Source: a virus. Taken from it: a DNA stretch of 38,421 nucleotides. Every line of letters starts with the position of its first letter. The stretch's first letter is position 1. Position numbers and translations under genes: made by a program. A model generated the notes under the pieces. It had not been told where the DNA came from. It made no database searches and was given only the letters and a program-made list of their open reading frames with translations. The stretch covers positions 1-38,421 of IMG/VR virus record IMGVR_UViG_3300035034_002034; one strand, given 5' to 3'. Shown one piece after another: positions 1 through 38,421 of this stretch.

Positions 1-732
1 AACATTACTATCAGTAGTTCCAAGATAAGCTAAGAAAGCTGGCTGATTAGGCTTCATAACCATACCAGCTATATAAGCCCTATCGATTTCACCACCCCCC
101 GTGCCATTCGTACCGAGGCGCATGACATTCGATTCGCCGACTACACCTTTGTTTTGAATCAAAATATTAGATGATTCTGAGGATGTATAGGCACCACCAG
201 TCATGAAATAGCATCCAGTACCTATTCCAATGTTAAAAGCCCCTGTAGTAAGCACACCAAGAGTTAATTCTCCGATCGCTATGTTCCTAGATGCACTCGT
301 TGCTGCTCTTAATGAGCCTTCACCAAACGCCTGGTTTTCTATCCCTTCAGTGCAAGACCTAAGAGCGTCAGACCCTATTGCAGTATTGCTCCTACCATCA
401 GTAAGAGAAGATAAAGCATCAGTACCTACTCCTACATTTCTACTACCAAAAGTAAGAGAAGATAAAACATTTTTACCTATTCCTACATTTGGTTCGAAGC
501 CCCTTGAAGTGGTATTACCAGCGTCTCTACCTATAAATACACTGTCTGGCCTATAGTCACTATAAGCATGAATAAATCTGTAACCATCAATCTTAATCTG
601 ACCAGTAGTTGATGTAGTTGAAGGTAAGTTTATATTACCTGACGTAACAGTTACATCACCAGTAGTTACTGTTAAGGTATCATCTACCGTTAATGTTCCT
701 GTTTTGTTACTTAGTGCATTTTGTGTACTCAT
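1..732 (-). CDS. Tail adhesin with YadA-like head repeats, C-terminus off the left edge
   Basis: I see 244 codons from an ATG preceded by AAGGAG; the frame is still open at base 1. After a short beta-rich N-terminus (residues 1-60) come repeats spaced about 14 residues apart with N-x-(A/V)-(I/V)-G cores (NVGVG, NTAIG, NIAIG, NIGIG). This is the left-handed roll signature of trimeric autotransporter heads, found in many phage fibres. A conserved ESSNILI...AYIAGM segment follows, then QPAFLAY, which in related fibres often opens a C1q-like cap. It is probably a trimeric receptor-binding fibre. The right-edge gene is a paralogue. If the window is circular, the next codon across the junction is TGA, so the cap would be missing. 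Receptor unknown. Confidence 0.85.
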   Translation of the reverse strand, partial: MSTQNALSNKTGTLTVDDTLTVTTGDVTVTSGNINLPSTTSTTGQIKIDGYRFIHAYSDYRPDSVFIGRDAGNTTSRGFEPNVGIGKNVLSSLTFGSRNVGVGTDALSSLTDGRSNTAIGSDALRSCTEGIENQAFGEGSLRAATSASRNIAIGELTLGVLTTGAFNIGIGTGCYFMTGGAYTSSESSNILIQNKGVVGESNVMRLGTNGTGGGEIDRAYIAGMVMKPNQPAFLAYLGTTDSNV

Positions 733-20087: not shown

Positions 20088-20432
20088 ATGACAGATTTTG
20101 AAATAGCTTGTTCTCGTTACTATTACCATGTTGTTGAGCCAATGAATCAAGTAAGACAAGTAGAAAAAGCATTAATTGATTGTGGTCATACTTTTGCGGA
20201 AATAATTCTGAATGATAGCGACCAGTTTGTCCTTCATAAAGATGAAATAACTGAAATTCCAAGATTTAGAAAAGTTTTATTTGTAGGCAAAGACGTTGTC
20301 TATAAAGAAATGAACGGTGAGTACGCACGGTATTTTGTTAAAAATATAGACGAGATTAAAGAGCAGCTTGCAAGTTTCATGATTTATTCAATTGAGTGTG
20401 ACATAAAAGAAGAAGAGACAAAAGAGTATTAA
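20088..20432 (+). CDS. Early protein of unknown function (114 aa)
   Basis: ATG with a near-perfect AAAGGAGG site. Mixed alpha/beta, acidic C-terminus (EEETKEY), three Cys, no membrane segment. The N-terminus FEIACSRYYYHVVEPMNQV is aromatic-rich. Its strong ribosome site implies high expression from the early transcript. No family recognised. Confidence 0.7.
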   Translation: MTDFEIACSRYYYHVVEPMNQVRQVEKALIDCGHTFAEIILNDSDQFVLHKDEITEIPRFRKVLFVGKDVVYKEMNGEYARYFVKNIDEIKEQLASFMIYSIECDIKEEETKEY

Positions 20433-25481: not shown

Positions 25482-25743
25482 ATGCATCTTAGAAGAACAC
25501 GCCTTAGGTCATAGAAACATCGACATATCAAAAAAACATAATCTTAATAGAAGCATTGTTTCTTATTATATCTGCAAAGAAAGACGCAACGTCTGGAACA
25601 TTAAAAATAAAACTAAAAAGAAGATCCTCAAAAAAGTAGTTAAGAAAAGCTTTATAGCTTTGTCAGACATAGCATTTTATCTTTGTATAGCCTTTGTGTT
25701 AGCTTCATGTGTTATTTCTTGGAGGTTGCACTTTGGAAGATAA
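25453..25743 (+). CDS. HTH DNA-binding protein with C-terminal membrane anchor
   Basis: 96 residues from the ATG with GAGG; an earlier ATG (25429) lacks a site. Residues 5-45 (KTIKCILEEHALGHRNIDIS...NLNRSIVSYYIC) form a resolvase/Hin-type helix-turn-helix. A highly basic linker follows (NKTKKKILKKVVKK). Residues 66-90 (FIALSDIAFYLCIAFVLASC) are a transmembrane segment. The DNA-binding head thus faces the cytoplasm next to the membrane. Membrane-tethered HTH proteins are uncommon in phages; possibly it localises replicating DNA or senses envelope state. Confidence 0.7.
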   Translation: MTRISSKTIKCILEEHALGHRNIDISKKHNLNRSIVSYYICKERRNVWNIKNKTKKKILKKVVKKSFIALSDIAFYLCIAFVLASCVISWRLHFGR

Positions 25744-26464
25744 TATACGTCGCTTAGAAGACAAGATTGATATTCTTACTAAGATAGTTTTAGAGAGAGT
25801 AGAGCCACTTTCTTATATAAAGAAAGTAAATCAATCAGAATCTACAATAGAGCTTTCTAAAGCATTAGCCTTAGCGCAAGGTGCCTATAAACCTATTAAG
25901 GAACTAGAAGAGAATAAGTATTCTGGTATAGCTTTTGCTAGCATTCAAGCTGTTATAGATGCTACAAGAGAGCCTCTTACTTCTAATGGTATTTCAGTAA
26001 TTCAAGTTATAAATGATTACTCGCATGATTCTTCTCAGATAATTCATACGCAGCTGAAGCATTCTAGTGGTGAATTTGTAGAAAGCCAAATGATAGTTAA
26101 GGCTAACGGTAATGATCCAGTCGCTCTTACAAGCTATATAAGCTGGCTTAAAAGAACGGCTTATTCATCTATAACTGGCTGTCATATACCTAGAGAAGAT
26201 GACGACTGCATACGCTATCAAAAAGGTTCTAATGAAAAGAAGCTTCTACGTGGTAGCGCTGCTAATAGAAAAGACGAATCATATGAACGTATCAATAAAG
26301 TTCAGTATGATGAATTAGTTGAAGAGTTAGATGGTTACCCAGACATGGCACAAATGATTATGGATGACCATGAAATAGACGATTTACATGAGCTACGTCA
26401 AAGCAAGTGGAAATCTGTTATAACAAAAGTAAGAACTAACAAGCAACTATTAAGGGAACGTTAA
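25733..26464 (+). CDS. ERF-family single-strand annealing protein, copy 1
   Basis: 243 residues from a TTG, seven bases after TTGGAGG; no in-frame ATG fits. Residues 1-20 form a coiled helix (RRLEDKIDILTKIV). The ERF core spans 45-160: AQGAYKPIKELEENKYSGIA, SIQAVIDATREPLTSNGISV, the variable strand region, then DPVALTSYISWLKRTAYSSI, equivalent to the conserved (G)SALTYARRY segment. C-terminal 60 residues are charged. ERF proteins pair complementary strands for recombination-dependent replication and genome circularisation. Next gene starts at its stop (TAATG). Confidence 0.85.
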   Translation: MEDNIRRLEDKIDILTKIVLERVEPLSYIKKVNQSESTIELSKALALAQGAYKPIKELEENKYSGIAFASIQAVIDATREPLTSNGISVIQVINDYSHDSSQIIHTQLKHSSGEFVESQMIVKANGNDPVALTSYISWLKRTAYSSITGCHIPREDDDCIRYQKGSNEKKLLRGSAANRKDESYERINKVQYDELVEELDGYPDMAQMIMDDHEIDDLHELRQSKWKSVITKVRTNKQLLRER

Positions 26465-27024
26465 TGGAAGAACAAGCTATTGCCGTTAGGGAAGAGCGCA
26501 CAGAAATAGTTGAGTATGGTGTAATAAAAAGAGCCTTAGCAGTAAGCCATGATAATTCTGTAGCTCTTAATAGACAGGTAGATGCTCTAAAGAAAGACGT
26601 TGCGGAGCTAAAAAAAGAGTTTGAATACGCACGCCAAAAAATGATATTTCCTGAGCACTCAGAAGAAACAAGAGATCTTGCTAAGTCTGTTAGTAAAGCT
26701 AAAGTCCAAGGACTTAAAGAACTAATAGCTAGCGGTAAAGGTCAACATGGAGATTATGAAAATTGGCCAGACTTACGTAGAGCTTTCGCAGAGCCTCTTG
26801 ATGACAATGGCCTTACCGTAGATTTCTTCCTTCAAGAGCGATGGGGTAGATTTGTTTTTATAGCTCGTATGGAGCATCCTGAATCTGGGCAATGGAAAGA
26901 GTGTATGATTGAGTTTGAAGAAGATAAAGATCTATCAGGAAAGATTAAGAATCCTGATCAGGCTTTAGGTGGAAAAATGACTTATCGTAAAAGACAGTCT
27001 TTCTCATTGTTGCTTGGCATATAA
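26464..27024 (+). CDS. ERF-like annealing protein, copy 2, lacking C-terminal tail
   Basis: 186 residues, coupled to copy 1 by TAATG. N-terminal coiled coil (residues 30-65, NRQVDALKKDVAELKKEFEY). The ERF core runs from residue 95: LRRAFAEPLDDNGLTVDFFL parallels the IDATREPLTSNGISV of copy 1. It ends DQALGGKMTYRKRQSFSLLL, the conserved closing helix where many ERF proteins continue with an acidic tail. Here the stop follows at once. Two different ERF cores in one operon suggest hetero-oligomers or a regulator/annealer pair. Confidence 0.75.
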   Translation: MEEQAIAVREERTEIVEYGVIKRALAVSHDNSVALNRQVDALKKDVAELKKEFEYARQKMIFPEHSEETRDLAKSVSKAKVQGLKELIASGKGQHGDYENWPDLRRAFAEPLDDNGLTVDFFLQERWGRFVFIARMEHPESGQWKECMIEFEEDKDLSGKIKNPDQALGGKMTYRKRQSFSLLLGI

Positions 27025-30021: not shown

Positions 30022-30975
30022 TTATGGTCGGCGGGTGCAACGAAGTCTTACAATCCAAGATTCATGAAGAATCATAGATACGAAAGAAGTTTTCCAAGCT
30101 AAAGTTGCATTTTGATGCAATGCACCGCCAGCAATTTCTGGTCCTGTATAGAGCATTTGAGCATGGAACCCATCTTGATCAACGATGCCCATTGCTTCAA
30201 GGCCCATGCAGAAGACATCATAAACATCATTGCCAAGGTTTGAAGAAGTAGGAGTCATTTCACCAAGAGGACTCAACATAAAACGCAATCCTGAAAGTTG
30301 ACCCCATTCAGCTATAGAAATGTTAGCTTGTGAAGGATATTCACTAACATGTTTAAAGCCTGGAGTTTGTTCAAGATCAGCAGAAAGATCTGTTGAGGCA
30401 AGAGCTAAATAAGAATTCTTGACTGGCGCGGTTCCGTATTTATTAGCGCCGTCCATGCCAGAAAGCATACGTTTTGCAGATGAGCCAAGAAGGGTTGTAG
30501 TAATAGCGCTAGCATCAGATAAAGTTATTTCTGATGGCGTGTCACCATTTGTTCCACCAACGCAGTTAACCCAAGCAGCTGAAGAAGCCATCATGTTACG
30601 TGAAAGAACATCTTCAGTTTCTCTCAATTGAAGAGAAAGCACTTGTGTGTGATAATTCAAAACTTTGTCTTGGTTTTGAATTACTAATTGCTCATTGATT
30701 TCTGTGTATGAACCATAGAAATCAGGTCTTGCTTCGATATCAGCTACTGTGACGTTAGATGCAGGAGGATTTGAGCCTTTATTTCCTAACGGTACTAATG
30801 CAGGATTTAGTTTATTTGGACGACGGAATAACATAGAATAACCGCCACCTTTAGGTAAACTTTCTTTTAAAGCACCCATATTGTGAATTAAATCTGGATA
30901 TTCCAGAGAGAGCATTGTGGTCGCCAAGCTTTTAATAATTGGCGCCGATATGGTTGATGTCGTCGAGACTGCCAT
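30022..30975 (-). CDS. Major capsid protein, N4-gp56-like
   Basis: 317 residues from the ATG with AAAGGAT; a start 39 nt upstream would add a hydrophobic leader unlikely for a capsid. The segment RPDFYGSYTEINEQLVIQNQ, then LQLRETEDVLSRNMM, is the E-loop/spine region typical of the N4-gp56 major head family. A long helix, A-domain and GLEAMGIVDQDG follow. HK97-fold shell subunit. It has a terminator upstream and probably its own promoter and leader (31015-31174), fitting high expression. Confidence 0.8.
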   Translation of the reverse strand: MAVSTTSTISAPIIKSLATTMLSLEYPDLIHNMGALKESLPKGGGYSMLFRRPNKLNPALVPLGNKGSNPPASNVTVADIEARPDFYGSYTEINEQLVIQNQDKVLNYHTQVLSLQLRETEDVLSRNMMASSAAWVNCVGGTNGDTPSEITLSDASAITTTLLGSSAKRMLSGMDGANKYGTAPVKNSYLALASTDLSADLEQTPGFKHVSEYPSQANISIAEWGQLSGLRFMLSPLGEMTPTSSNLGNDVYDVFCMGLEAMGIVDQDGFHAQMLYTGPEIAGGALHQNATLAWKTSFVSMILHESWIVRLRCTRRP

Positions 30976-31174
30976 CGCATATCCTTTTATAATGAAAAAA
31001 CTATAAAACAACAAAACGAGAGTTGACGATGCTCCTTACGTCTGAAGGTTGCGAGGCTTCTTACGCAAGCTATTTAACCATAATAGCGAAGAAGTGGCGC
31101 CGATCTCACCAATACGGGCTGAAATAAGATATAGCACCCAATAAATGGAAGACAAAACTTAAAGAAAATAAAAA

Positions 31175-35922: not shown

Positions 35923-36111
35923 CTATTTTTTTGATTTATCTTCTGGAGAGTTTGGCGTTAAATCAATATCAATATTAGTTTGATCTTTAATGTATTGTTC
36001 TGCTGTTTCTTCAACAACATTGTCATCAGGATACTTAGGCCAAAAATGCTTAACACCAGCAGTAAATGCTAAACCTAGTCCAATTATAGCCGCGACTAAA
36101 AAACTGTTCAT
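35923..36111 (-). CDS. 62-residue N-terminally anchored membrane protein
   Basis: ATG with AGGAG. Residues 2-21 (NSFLVAAIIGLGLAFTAGVK) form a transmembrane helix, then a charged acidic domain with WPKYPDDNVVEETAEQYIKD and IDIDLTPNSPEDKS. This type, one helix plus PDDNxVEE...LTPNSPE, recurs in podovirus-like genomes beside portal genes; function unknown. Possible i-spanin or membrane-associated virion protein. Preceded by hairpin H1. Confidence 0.7.
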   Translation of the reverse strand: MNSFLVAAIIGLGLAFTAGVKHFWPKYPDDNVVEETAEQYIKDQTNIDIDLTPNSPEDKSKK

Positions 36112-36208: not shown

Positions 36209-37333
36209 CTAATACCAAAGACACATAACATATTCATAGACAGTTGGCCTTACTCCTGCAACAAGACCTCCATCTCTATTACAAGTGCTTCCTGTATTAG
36301 ACCCAGTAGCATATACAATATTATCTTTAGCCATATGTCGTCCGTTATTTCCAATAGTTAATAAAGTTACACCGCTGCTTCCTTCGTTTATAGAAGCGGT
36401 AAATGTTGAAGCATTGCCAGAACCACCAGTACCTAGATCTCCAGATGTTCCCAAACCAGTAGCAAATAAAGCATCGCTTTTTCTCATAATAGTATATTGA
36501 TAGCCTTCAACTACTTCTTCTACACCGCTTGTTCCCTCACCAATACAGGCAACCCAAGAAGTTCTTTGTGTTCCAGTACCATCACCTAATTGACCAAAAT
36601 AATTCCATCCACAACCATAAAGAACCCCTCCTTTTATGATGTGTGAAGCTTGATATCCAACAGAAATATAATCTACTCCAGATGCTGCAACGCCAGAACT
36701 TATGGTAAAGGAAGTCTTTTGAGCAGTCGAACCTATTCCTAAACAACCCTTAGCGTTGTAGCCAGCTCCATAAACAACACCACTTTTTAATATCAATGTC
36801 TCATAAGGTCCTATTGATACATTAGTCACTCCAGAAGAACCTGCTCCTGAACATGCTGTTAAAGTAGTTATGGAACTTGTTGTAGATCCAATACCTAATT
36901 GACCATTGCTATTATACCCGCAAGCGTATAATACACCTGATATTGAGATAATTGTTTGATCATGTCCAGCATATATAGCTGTTACACCACTAGAACCAGC
37001 TCCGCTCATAGCAGAATATGTTTTTGTAAAATTGCTAGAACCAGATGATCCATTTCCTAACTGTCCCCGATACCCAGAGCCAGAAATATAAGCTACGCCA
37101 GCTTTTAAATAAAGAGAGTGAGCTTTCCCCATTGCAATATCTGAGGCACCTGTAGTTATTTCAGTAAACGCTGGTGAAGTGCCAGGAGCATCGAACCCTA
37201 AAACTGAGTTGCTATAAGAAGTATCATCTATAGGAGTATTAGATCCTCCTCCATAAACTGCTCCAGTGTCAGTTAAAATAAGCGTATTATAACTGCCAGA
37301 TGCTATTTTTATTATATTTCCATCAATCGAGCT
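36209..37333 (-). CDS. RCC1-type seven-blade propeller domain, likely C-terminus of adhesin by +1 frameshift
   Basis: 374 codons in the +1 frame of the upstream adhesin. Repeats of about 50 residues with the RCC1 pattern (VxxIxxGxxxTxxxxxGxxYxxGxNxxGQLGxG): GYNSNGQLGIG, GYNAKGCLGIG, GWNYFGQLGDG, GLGTSGDLGTG. The first ATG (37132) lies inside a strand of blade two. Blade one (KIASGSYNTLILTDTGAVYG, 37307-37250 approx.) is encoded upstream with no ATG, GTG or TTG. Counting it gives seven blades, the RCC1 number. The final blade is partly degenerate. Probably a receptor-binding or host-interacting propeller displayed on the fibre. Confidence 0.75.
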   Translation of the reverse strand, partial: SSIDGNIIKIASGSYNTLILTDTGAVYGGGSNTPIDDTSYSNSVLGFDAPGTSPAFTEITTGASDIAMGKAHSLYLKAGVAYISGSGYRGQLGNGSSGSSNFTKTYSAMSGAGSSGVTAIYAGHDQTIISISGVLYACGYNSNGQLGIGSTTSSITTLTACSGAGSSGVTNVSIGPYETLILKSGVVYGAGYNAKGCLGIGSTAQKTSFTISSGVAASGVDYISVGYQASHIIKGGVLYGCGWNYFGQLGDGTGTQRTSWVACIGEGTSGVEEVVEGYQYTIMRKSDALFATGLGTSGDLGTGGSGNASTFTASINEGSSGVTLLTIGNNGRHMAKDNIVYATGSNTGSTCNRDGGLVAGVRPTVYEYVMCLWY

Positions 37334-37337
37334 AGGG
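37332..37337 (-). promoter_or_regulatory. Candidate +1 frameshift site CCC-TAG
   Basis: The adhesin ends GGA TGT CCC TAG. A proline tRNA on CCC can slip forward onto CCT when the stop is slow to be recognised, giving CCT AGC TCG, which opens the propeller frame. Listeria phage PSA uses CCC-TGA in the same way for structural proteins. Here the site is seen; use of the shift is inferred. Confidence 0.6.
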
Positions 37338-38421
37338 ACATCCTAGTAGCACTTTTAATGCAGCTATGGAGATTGTACCAAGTTTTTCTGTATTATCAGC
37401 GACTCCTATCTCTAAAGAACCCGCATCTACTGCTTCTTGGTATGTATCATTTAAATTAACGGTAACGGTTGATCCTGTTCCTGCTGTATTAACGTTCTGC
37501 CCACCAAGAACATTTAATGTTTCACCAGACGGTTGAGCTGTTCCAGAATCTGTTACAAAGTCTTCAGTAACATCACTATTAGTTGTTCCTAATCGACCAA
37601 ATTCATCGATAATGACTGTCTTAGAGTTAACGCTTGTTAAAGTTTCATCATATATACCTGCTATATAACAAGTATCTTGCTCTTTAACGCCAGTTCCCGT
37701 TACACCAATTCTTATAGTATTTGATTCTGCCGCTATACCTGGGCTTCCTATAAGTATGTTTGATGATTCTGTTGAGGTAAGAGATATTCCAGCATTATGA
37801 CCAATGAGAATGTTGTAGTCACCTTCCAGTAAGACTGAGCCAGTATAATAACCCAATGTTGAGTTGCTGCTACCTGTACAAAGTTGTAATGAATTACTAC
37901 CAACGGCCGCATTCTTTGAACCATCTATACAACTAAATAAACAACTCTCACCAACAGCAACATTATCATCAGAGGCAACAAGAGCTGATAGGGCACCATC
38001 GCCAAGAACTGTGTTATTCGAGCCAGTTGTTACAGCTTGGCATGCGAATGCTCCTACTGATACGTTCTTACTGCCTTCCGTAAGATATCTAAGGCTTTCT
38101 CCACCTAAAGCAATGTTTCTTGAACCGCTAGTTATGGCGGATAAGCTACTTTCTCCAACTGCTGTGTTATTTATTCCTGTTAAAGCTAAATCACCAGCAA
38201 GAGATCCTATAAATGTATTGTCGTCAGAGTCTGTAACATTAAGACTAACCGTAGTCCCCGTAGCAGTAAACAATACTGATGAACCACAACCTAGAGTAGC
38301 GTTATCAGCAACTATATTTATAATGCCCTCTACAGGAGTAGCGGTGCTTGCATCATCGCCAGTATAAATATCTGCAAAGGAAAGAAGATCTGTTAACAAG
38401 GCTACATCTGCACCAATATCA
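37332..38421 (-). CDS. Tail adhesin with YadA-like head repeats, N-terminus off the right edge
   Basis: The frame is open through base 38420; a TTG at 38399 is a possible but unlikely start. N-terminal 80 residues beta-rich (DDASTATPVEGIINIVADNA). About seven head repeats follow (NTFIG, NTAVG, NIALG, NVSVG, NTVLG, NVAVG, NAAVG) ending SSNILIG...CYIAGIYDETL. A C-terminal shaft with NVNTAGTGSTVTVNLNDTYQ and VLLGCP then meets CCC-TAG and the propeller frame. If the ends are joined, the start is ATG at base 5 (minus), overlapping the left adhesin's TGA by 8 nt. Paralogue of that adhesin. Confidence 0.85.
   Translation of the reverse strand, partial: DIGADVALLTDLLSFADIYTGDDASTATPVEGIINIVADNATLGCGSSVLFTATGTTVSLNVTDSDDNTFIGSLAGDLALTGINNTAVGESSLSAITSGSRNIALGGESLRYLTEGSKNVSVGAFACQAVTTGSNNTVLGDGALSALVASDDNVAVGESCLFSCIDGSKNAAVGSNSLQLCTGSSNSTLGYYTGSVLLEGDYNILIGHNAGISLTSTESSNILIGSPGIAAESNTIRIGVTGTGVKEQDTCYIAGIYDETLTSVNSKTVIIDEFGRLGTTNSDVTEDFVTDSGTAQPSGETLNVLGGQNVNTAGTGSTVTVNLNDTYQEAVDAGSLEIGVADNTEKLGTISIAALKVLLGCP

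What the first reader, a model, noticed from the sequence alone, without database searches (positions are those of the whole stretch)
36209..38421. YadA-like adhesin apparently fused by +1 frameshift to an RCC1 propeller
The adhesin frame ends ...TGT CCC TAG. The +1 frame, open from that exact point, encodes a complete RCC1 blade before the first usable ATG, and seven blades in total. The segment between stop and ATG has no ATG, GTG or TTG, and the ATG falls inside a blade strand. CCC-stop is a proven +1 slippery site in Listeria phage PSA structural genes. A stop-regulated mix of short adhesin and adhesin-propeller trimers would give two receptor-binding tips from one gene. RCC1 propellers are rare on phage tails.
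Basis: partly seen in the sequence, partly recalled or inferred. Interest (0 to 1): 0.88.

Follow-up and report, generated by a model that had tools for sequence, protein, structure and literature searches.

The report
Phage fibre gene with out-of-frame propeller
In an uncultured phage, the gene for a virus fibre stops exactly where related phages encode the fibre's receptor-binding tip, and a complete seven-bladed propeller tip follows in the next reading frame, so either ribosomes slip by one base there or the sequenced copy carries a one-base break.

Summary
On the minus strand a YadA-type fibre frame (38420-37332, 5' end cut by the contig edge) ends GGA TGT CCC TAG. The +1 frame (37342-36209) overlaps it by 11 nt and encodes a complete seven-bladed RCC1 propeller. 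It has no ATG/GTG/TTG before residue 71, and that ATG has no ribosome-binding site.

Relatives found by portal protein (44-53% identity) support a fused product. Every complete YadA-type fibre I could read there carries its tip domain in the same frame. In the closest relative, a tip follows the homologous stem exactly where the window's fibre stops. Stand-alone phage RCC1 proteins start with a 25-50 residue leader that this one lacks.

How the frames are joined is undecided. For a +1 slip: CCC before a stop is a proven slip site, and the layout arises from only about 0.8% of simulated one-base duplications. Against: no conserved shift, no significant Shine-Dalgarno-like stimulator, an unusually unstructured downstream region, and a single contig whose assembly breaks inside this gene. 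I give programmed slip and a one-base indel equal odds. The claim that RCC1 is rare on phages is wrong: it is common, and proven in virions.

The parts
37332..38420 (-). YadA-head fibre frame (362 codons), 5' end cut by the contig end; product of standard decoding
   Evidence: phrog_6002 5e-26, tail spike phrog_4636 6e-22
37374..37550 (-). stem segment of the fibre (residues 291-349), 50% identical to the stem of relative L090, after which L090 continues in frame into its tip domain
37332..37337 (-). CCC TAG (followed by C): candidate +1 slip codon and stop
   Evidence: the only CCC in the 735-residue joined reading
37332..37342 (-). 11-nt overlap of the two open frames, the only place where they can be joined
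36209..37342 (-). RCC1 seven-bladed propeller frame, +1 relative to the fibre, no start codon of its own; stop at 36209-36211
37244..37315 (-). first propeller blade (residues 10-33), upstream of the first ATG
37130..37132 (-). first ATG of the RCC1 frame, inside a strand (residues 68-71), no RBS
1..732 (-). second YadA-head fibre gene, 3' end cut by the other contig end
742..3729 (-). third YadA-head fibre gene with its C-terminal domain in frame
35923..36111 (-). small membrane-protein-like gene downstream; its homologue in L090 directly precedes the homologous fibre gene

Best explanation
The RCC1 propeller is the C-terminal (probably receptor-binding) tip of the YadA-head fibre, swapped in where relatives carry other tips. 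Its coding sequence lies in the +1 frame. A fraction of ribosomes reaching CCC_UAG slip forward one base (peptidyl-tRNA-Pro re-pairs from CCC to CCU) and make fibre plus propeller; the rest stop and make a tipless fibre. Shown: the two frames, the complete propeller, the missing start and RBS, the position of the tip relative to homologous stems, and the slip-type layout. Inferred: that slippage happens, at what rate, that short and long forms are both used, and that the tip binds a receptor.
For: Complete propeller only if the segment before the ATG is translated. No start codon and no RBS. In relative L090 the stem homologous to residues 291-349 continues in frame into a tip domain, whereas the window's fibre stops 13 residues later. 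Stand-alone phage RCC1 proteins carry a 25-50 residue leader before the first LWTWG-type motif; here that place holds propeller strands, as in the fibre-fused RCC1 of L003. CCC is 28 of 8,987 codons in the genome and occurs once in the joined reading, at the stop, in the direction that opens the propeller frame. A random one-base duplication gives an equally short overlap with a strong slip codon in 0.78% of positions. 3 of 1,808 genes have a start-less follow-on frame and 8 of 1,808 end in CCC. Precedents: CCC_UGA +1 shifts in Listeria phage tail genes, 15% shifting at pheL CCC_UGA in E. coli K12, and moved domains that land out of frame and are expressed by frameshifting (PMC5009743).
Against: No relative conserves a shift; their fibre tips are in frame. 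Anti-SD pairing 5' of CCC is ordinary (-4.2 kcal/mol; 15% of positions as good; prfB-type -10.6). The 60 nt downstream are less structured than 99% of the gene. The stop is UAG, not the UGA of the Listeria sites. One contig only, with no second allele. The contig ends inside this gene. One-base breaks do occur in such data (L010, L198).
Confidence: 0.42

Rival explanations
1. The gene is an ordinary in-frame fibre-propeller fusion, and the contig carries a one-base insertion or deletion within the 11-nt overlap: an assembly or sequencing error, or a real recent mutation that removes the tip.
For: All readable relatives have in-frame tips. Indel-broken genes occur in the same data: L198, a clade member, and L010, a phage RCC1 gene. 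The contig breaks inside this same gene, suggesting hard assembly or strain variation.
Against: Only about 0.8% of random one-base duplications give an overlap this short with a strong slip codon at the stop. Such broken genes are rare here, 3 of 1,808 by the start-less criterion including this one. No other broken gene was evident in the window.
Confidence: 0.42
2. The propeller is a separate gene whose start is non-canonical or was damaged; it would be a stand-alone virion protein.
For: Stand-alone RCC1 genes are common in phages. S-SRM01 has one overlapping a tail-fibre gene. Relative G001 has a separate WD40-type propeller gene with ATG and AGGAG right after a fibre gene.
Against: No ATG/GTG/TTG and no spaced RBS, while the other gene starts checked in the window have a recognisable RBS. 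The leader of stand-alone RCC1 proteins is missing. The fibre would then end in a bare stem.
Confidence: 0.1
3. A recombination event dropped an RCC1 tip out of frame and it is not expressed; the short fibre is the only product.
For: RCC1 is absent from the relatives searched, so it was acquired in this lineage. Out-of-frame landing of moved domains is described (PMC5009743).
Against: The 377-codon frame is intact and still folds as a propeller. The junction falls exactly at the domain boundary with a slip codon at the stop.
Confidence: 0.06

Closest known systems
Listeria phage PSA/A118/A500 tail gene tsh, +1 frameshifting at CCC_UGA (PMC5009743)
   Same: +1 shift codon CCC directly before a stop, tail gene, AT-rich genome in which CCC is rare, C-terminally extended second product
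   Different: UAG instead of UGA; fibre gene instead of tail tube; not tested experimentally; no conservation in relatives
Virion RCC1 proteins of phages GAP32 and W70 (phrog_4219; PMC5259590, PMC11370258)
   Same: same propeller family (window matches phrog_7220 and phrog_4219); proven virion proteins
   Different: there annotated as RCC1 genes of their own; here a start-less frame behind a YadA-type fibre
In-frame tailed fibres of the same uncultured podovirus clade (L090, L091, G001, G027, G056, G074 and others)
   Same: YadA-type heads, same neck and stem, C-terminal tip domain
   Different: tips are C1q-like, tail-collar or S74-like and in frame; none is RCC1
Bacterial prfB +1 frameshift cassette
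   Same: slip codon, stop and a following C in the same order
   Different: no strong Shine-Dalgarno; CCC_UAG instead of CUU_UGA

Membership tests
RCC1-like seven-bladed propeller | RCC1 repeat profile above cut-off | tested here: met
   PF00415 47 bits (cut-off 21.7), PF13540 46.9 (cut-off 22); PF25390 below its cut-off (112.8 of 150)
RCC1-like seven-bladed propeller | seven blades, fold matches solved RCC1 or UVR8 | tested here: met
   seven strand groups, pTM 0.78; UVR8 TM 0.77, E 1e-24 to 1e-23
YadA/Hep_Hag-type trimeric fibre | tandem NTAVG-type head repeats in a phage tail protein | tested here: met
   phrog_4636 tail spike and phrog_6002; tblastn to phage fibres; no Pfam head model reached E 0.01
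Programmed +1 ribosomal frameshift | slip codon at a slow or stop codon, with the correct new frame open | tested here: met
   CCC TAG, +1 frame open for 375 codons
Programmed +1 ribosomal frameshift | 5' Shine-Dalgarno or 3' RNA structure stimulator | tested here: not met
   anti-SD -4.2, not unusual; downstream MFE -3.8, among the weakest in the gene. Not obligatory: the review describes the Listeria tsh site by its stop codon rather than by a pseudoknot
Programmed +1 ribosomal frameshift | conservation of shift site and frame arrangement among relatives | tested here: not met
   tips in frame in clade relatives; no relative with RCC1
Programmed +1 ribosomal frameshift | fusion product detected, or reporter shift measured | not testable with these tools
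   needs mass spectrometry or a dual reporter
Stand-alone phage RCC1 gene | own start codon with RBS and N-terminal leader | tested here: not met

The most novel reading that the evidence does not exclude
One phage fibre gene yields two fibre forms, a tipless trimer and a trimer with RCC1 propeller tips, in a ratio set by +1 slippage at CCC_UAG. The shift arose when a swapped-in tip domain landed out of frame.
Probability: 0.35. Interest if true: 0.75.

Novelty: new variant of a known kind. Interest (0 to 1): 0.42.

Why it matters
If the slip is real, it would be a ribosomal-frameshift switch on a phage fibre tip, giving two fibre forms from one gene, and an example of how an out-of-frame domain swap can be rescued by recoding. 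Even if the frame break is an error, the locus shows an RCC1 propeller used as an exchangeable tip on YadA-type fibres, in a large uncultured podovirus clade whose fibre tips are otherwise C1q-like, collar or S74-like.

Tried and rejected
Close relatives by single proteins in viral contigs: portal none, RCC1 one distant hit, joined junction piece none, junction DNA with 0-2 free bases none; the tools may leave out near records. Known phages: only four distant RCC1 hits. prfB-like Shine-Dalgarno stimulator: looked attractive (AGGA three bases before CCC) but is no better than 15% of positions. 3' stem-loop or pseudoknot stimulator: none seen. Separate-gene reading: no start, RBS or leader. Closure of the contig ends: no direct overlap of 15 nt or more. 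Structure of the G001 in-frame tip: model useless (mean pLDDT 35), so I do not claim that it is a propeller. Genome contigs: only Bacteroidota-type YadA-like proteins, no informative relative.

Full report
WHAT IS THERE. The window is a linear IMG/VR record of 38,421 bases, 38% G+C, with a P22-type portal and no tRNA. On the minus strand a YadA-head fibre frame runs in from the right contig end (38420) and stops at 37332 with GGA TGT CCC TAG C. The +1 frame is closed by a TAG three codons earlier, is open from 37342 and runs 377 codons to 36209; the two open frames overlap by 11 nt. That frame matches phage RCC1 families phrog_7220 (7.5e-39) and phrog_4219 (2.5e-34) and Pfam RCC1 and RCC1_2 above cut-off, with one match at residues 10-36. 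The first ATG, GTG or TTG is ATG 37132 at residue 71.

IS THE PROPELLER COMPLETE ONLY WITH THE SEGMENT BEFORE THE ATG? Yes. An AlphaFold2 model built with 17 phage relatives (pTM 0.78) has seven strand groups; the first is residues 10-33 and the ATG lies in strand 68-71. Foldseek ranks UVR8, RPGR, HERC2 and RCC1 first, and phmmer aligns residues 7-287 with human RCC1. The ATG has no Shine-Dalgarno pairing (+0.4 kcal/mol), while seven other starts in the window have -5.5 to -9.3.

RELATIVES. Single-protein searches found nothing close. A profile of the three fibre necks (A2) found L089, L090 and L091, whose records carry portals 45-53% identical to the window's. A portal profile then gave at least 557 related loci, of which 80 were kept. 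In L090 the fibre gene next to the portal has a stem 50% identical to window residues 291-349 and then continues in frame for about 168 residues of tip domain. The window's fibre frame stops only 13 residues after that stem. In L091 the tip is a C1q domain (E 1.5e-11) and in G001 a tail-collar domain plus repeats. I read further fibre genes in nine more relatives; every complete one carries 120 residues or more after the neck in the same frame, and none ends in CCC-stop or is followed by a start-less frame. RCC1 was not found in the 50 related records searched or in the 18 searched earlier, apart from one weak match in a bacterial genome. So RCC1 is a lineage-specific tip swap, and the frame break is unique to this contig.

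STAND-ALONE OR FUSED? RCC1 genes are common in viral contigs (at least 425 loci). I inspected the start regions of the RCC1 frames in the 80 loci kept. Stand-alone ones mostly begin with a 25-50 residue leader followed by an LWTWG-type strand. In the window that stretch is itself propeller strand sequence, as in the fibre-fused RCC1 of L003. Relative G001 has a separate WD40-type propeller gene with its own ATG and AGGAG right behind a fibre gene, so the separate-gene layout exists in this clade, but the window lacks its marks.

SLIP OR BREAK? For a slip: CCC is rare here (28 of 8,987 codons) and occurs once in the joined 735-residue reading, directly at the stop and in the right direction. 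Simulating a one-base duplication at 20,378 coding positions gives an overlap of 12 nt or less in 6.0%, CCC as last codon in 0.9%, and both a short overlap and a strong slip codon (CCC, CTT, TTT, GGG) in 0.78%. Among 1,808 genes in 2.3 Mb of loci, 8 end in CCC and 3 have a long start-less follow-on frame, giving 0.013 expected coincidences; the window is the only gene with both. The choice of slip codons was made after seeing the site, so these figures are guides rather than strict probabilities. CCC_UGA is used for +1 shifting in Listeria phage tail genes, shifts at 15% in E. coli K12 pheL, and moved domains that land out of frame are sometimes expressed by frameshifting (PMC5009743).

Against a slip: anti-Shine-Dalgarno pairing 5' of CCC is -4.2 kcal/mol, matched by 15% of positions, versus -10.6 for the prfB sequence. 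The 60 nt after the stop fold at -3.8 kcal/mol, weaker than 99% of windows in the gene. There is no conservation. The contig ends inside this gene, where assembly is hard. True one-base breaks exist in comparable data: a replication gene in clade member L198 and an RCC1 gene in L010. I could not see reads or a second allele.

VERDICT. Fusion as the intended architecture: about 0.85 (inference from relatives, missing start, missing leader). Programmed slip and one-base indel: about 0.42 each. The probability that both short and long forms are used by the phage is lower, 0.35. The statement that RCC1 is rare on phage tails is not: RCC1 proteins are virion components of GAP32 (PMC5259590) and W70 (PMC11370258).

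Noticed in passing
L162/L163 (record of L091), contig about 19,780-21,600: The major capsid gene (homologue of window 30022-31014) is interrupted about three times by inserts sharing the same boundary sequences (5' AAATTTTCTCTGATTGACTTGGAA, 3' TAGGTCACAAAAGTAACAGAATTG). They look like several related introns in one capsid gene; Rfam found no known family.
   Followed up: partly
window 1-732 and 37332-38420: Both contig ends lie inside YadA-head fibre genes on the same strand, so the record may be a nearly complete circular map broken within the fibre repeats; no terminal overlap of 15 nt or more.
   Followed up: partly
L160:2516-4459 (-), record G001: Separate gene for a WD40-type propeller protein with strong RBS directly behind a fibre gene in a relative; PHROGs has no match.
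   Followed up: partly
window 25709-26464 and 26464-27024 (+): Two adjacent genes both match Erf-like single-strand annealing proteins over the same profile region: a tandem pair of paralogues.
   Followed up: no
L198 about 884-920: A replication-type gene in a clade member is broken by a frame change next to an A-run: an example of the base rate of one-base breaks.
   Followed up: partly
L010 about 2751-2784: A phage RCC1 gene in an isolate record is split into two frames compared with the intact gene of Clostridioides phage LIBA6276.
   Followed up: partly
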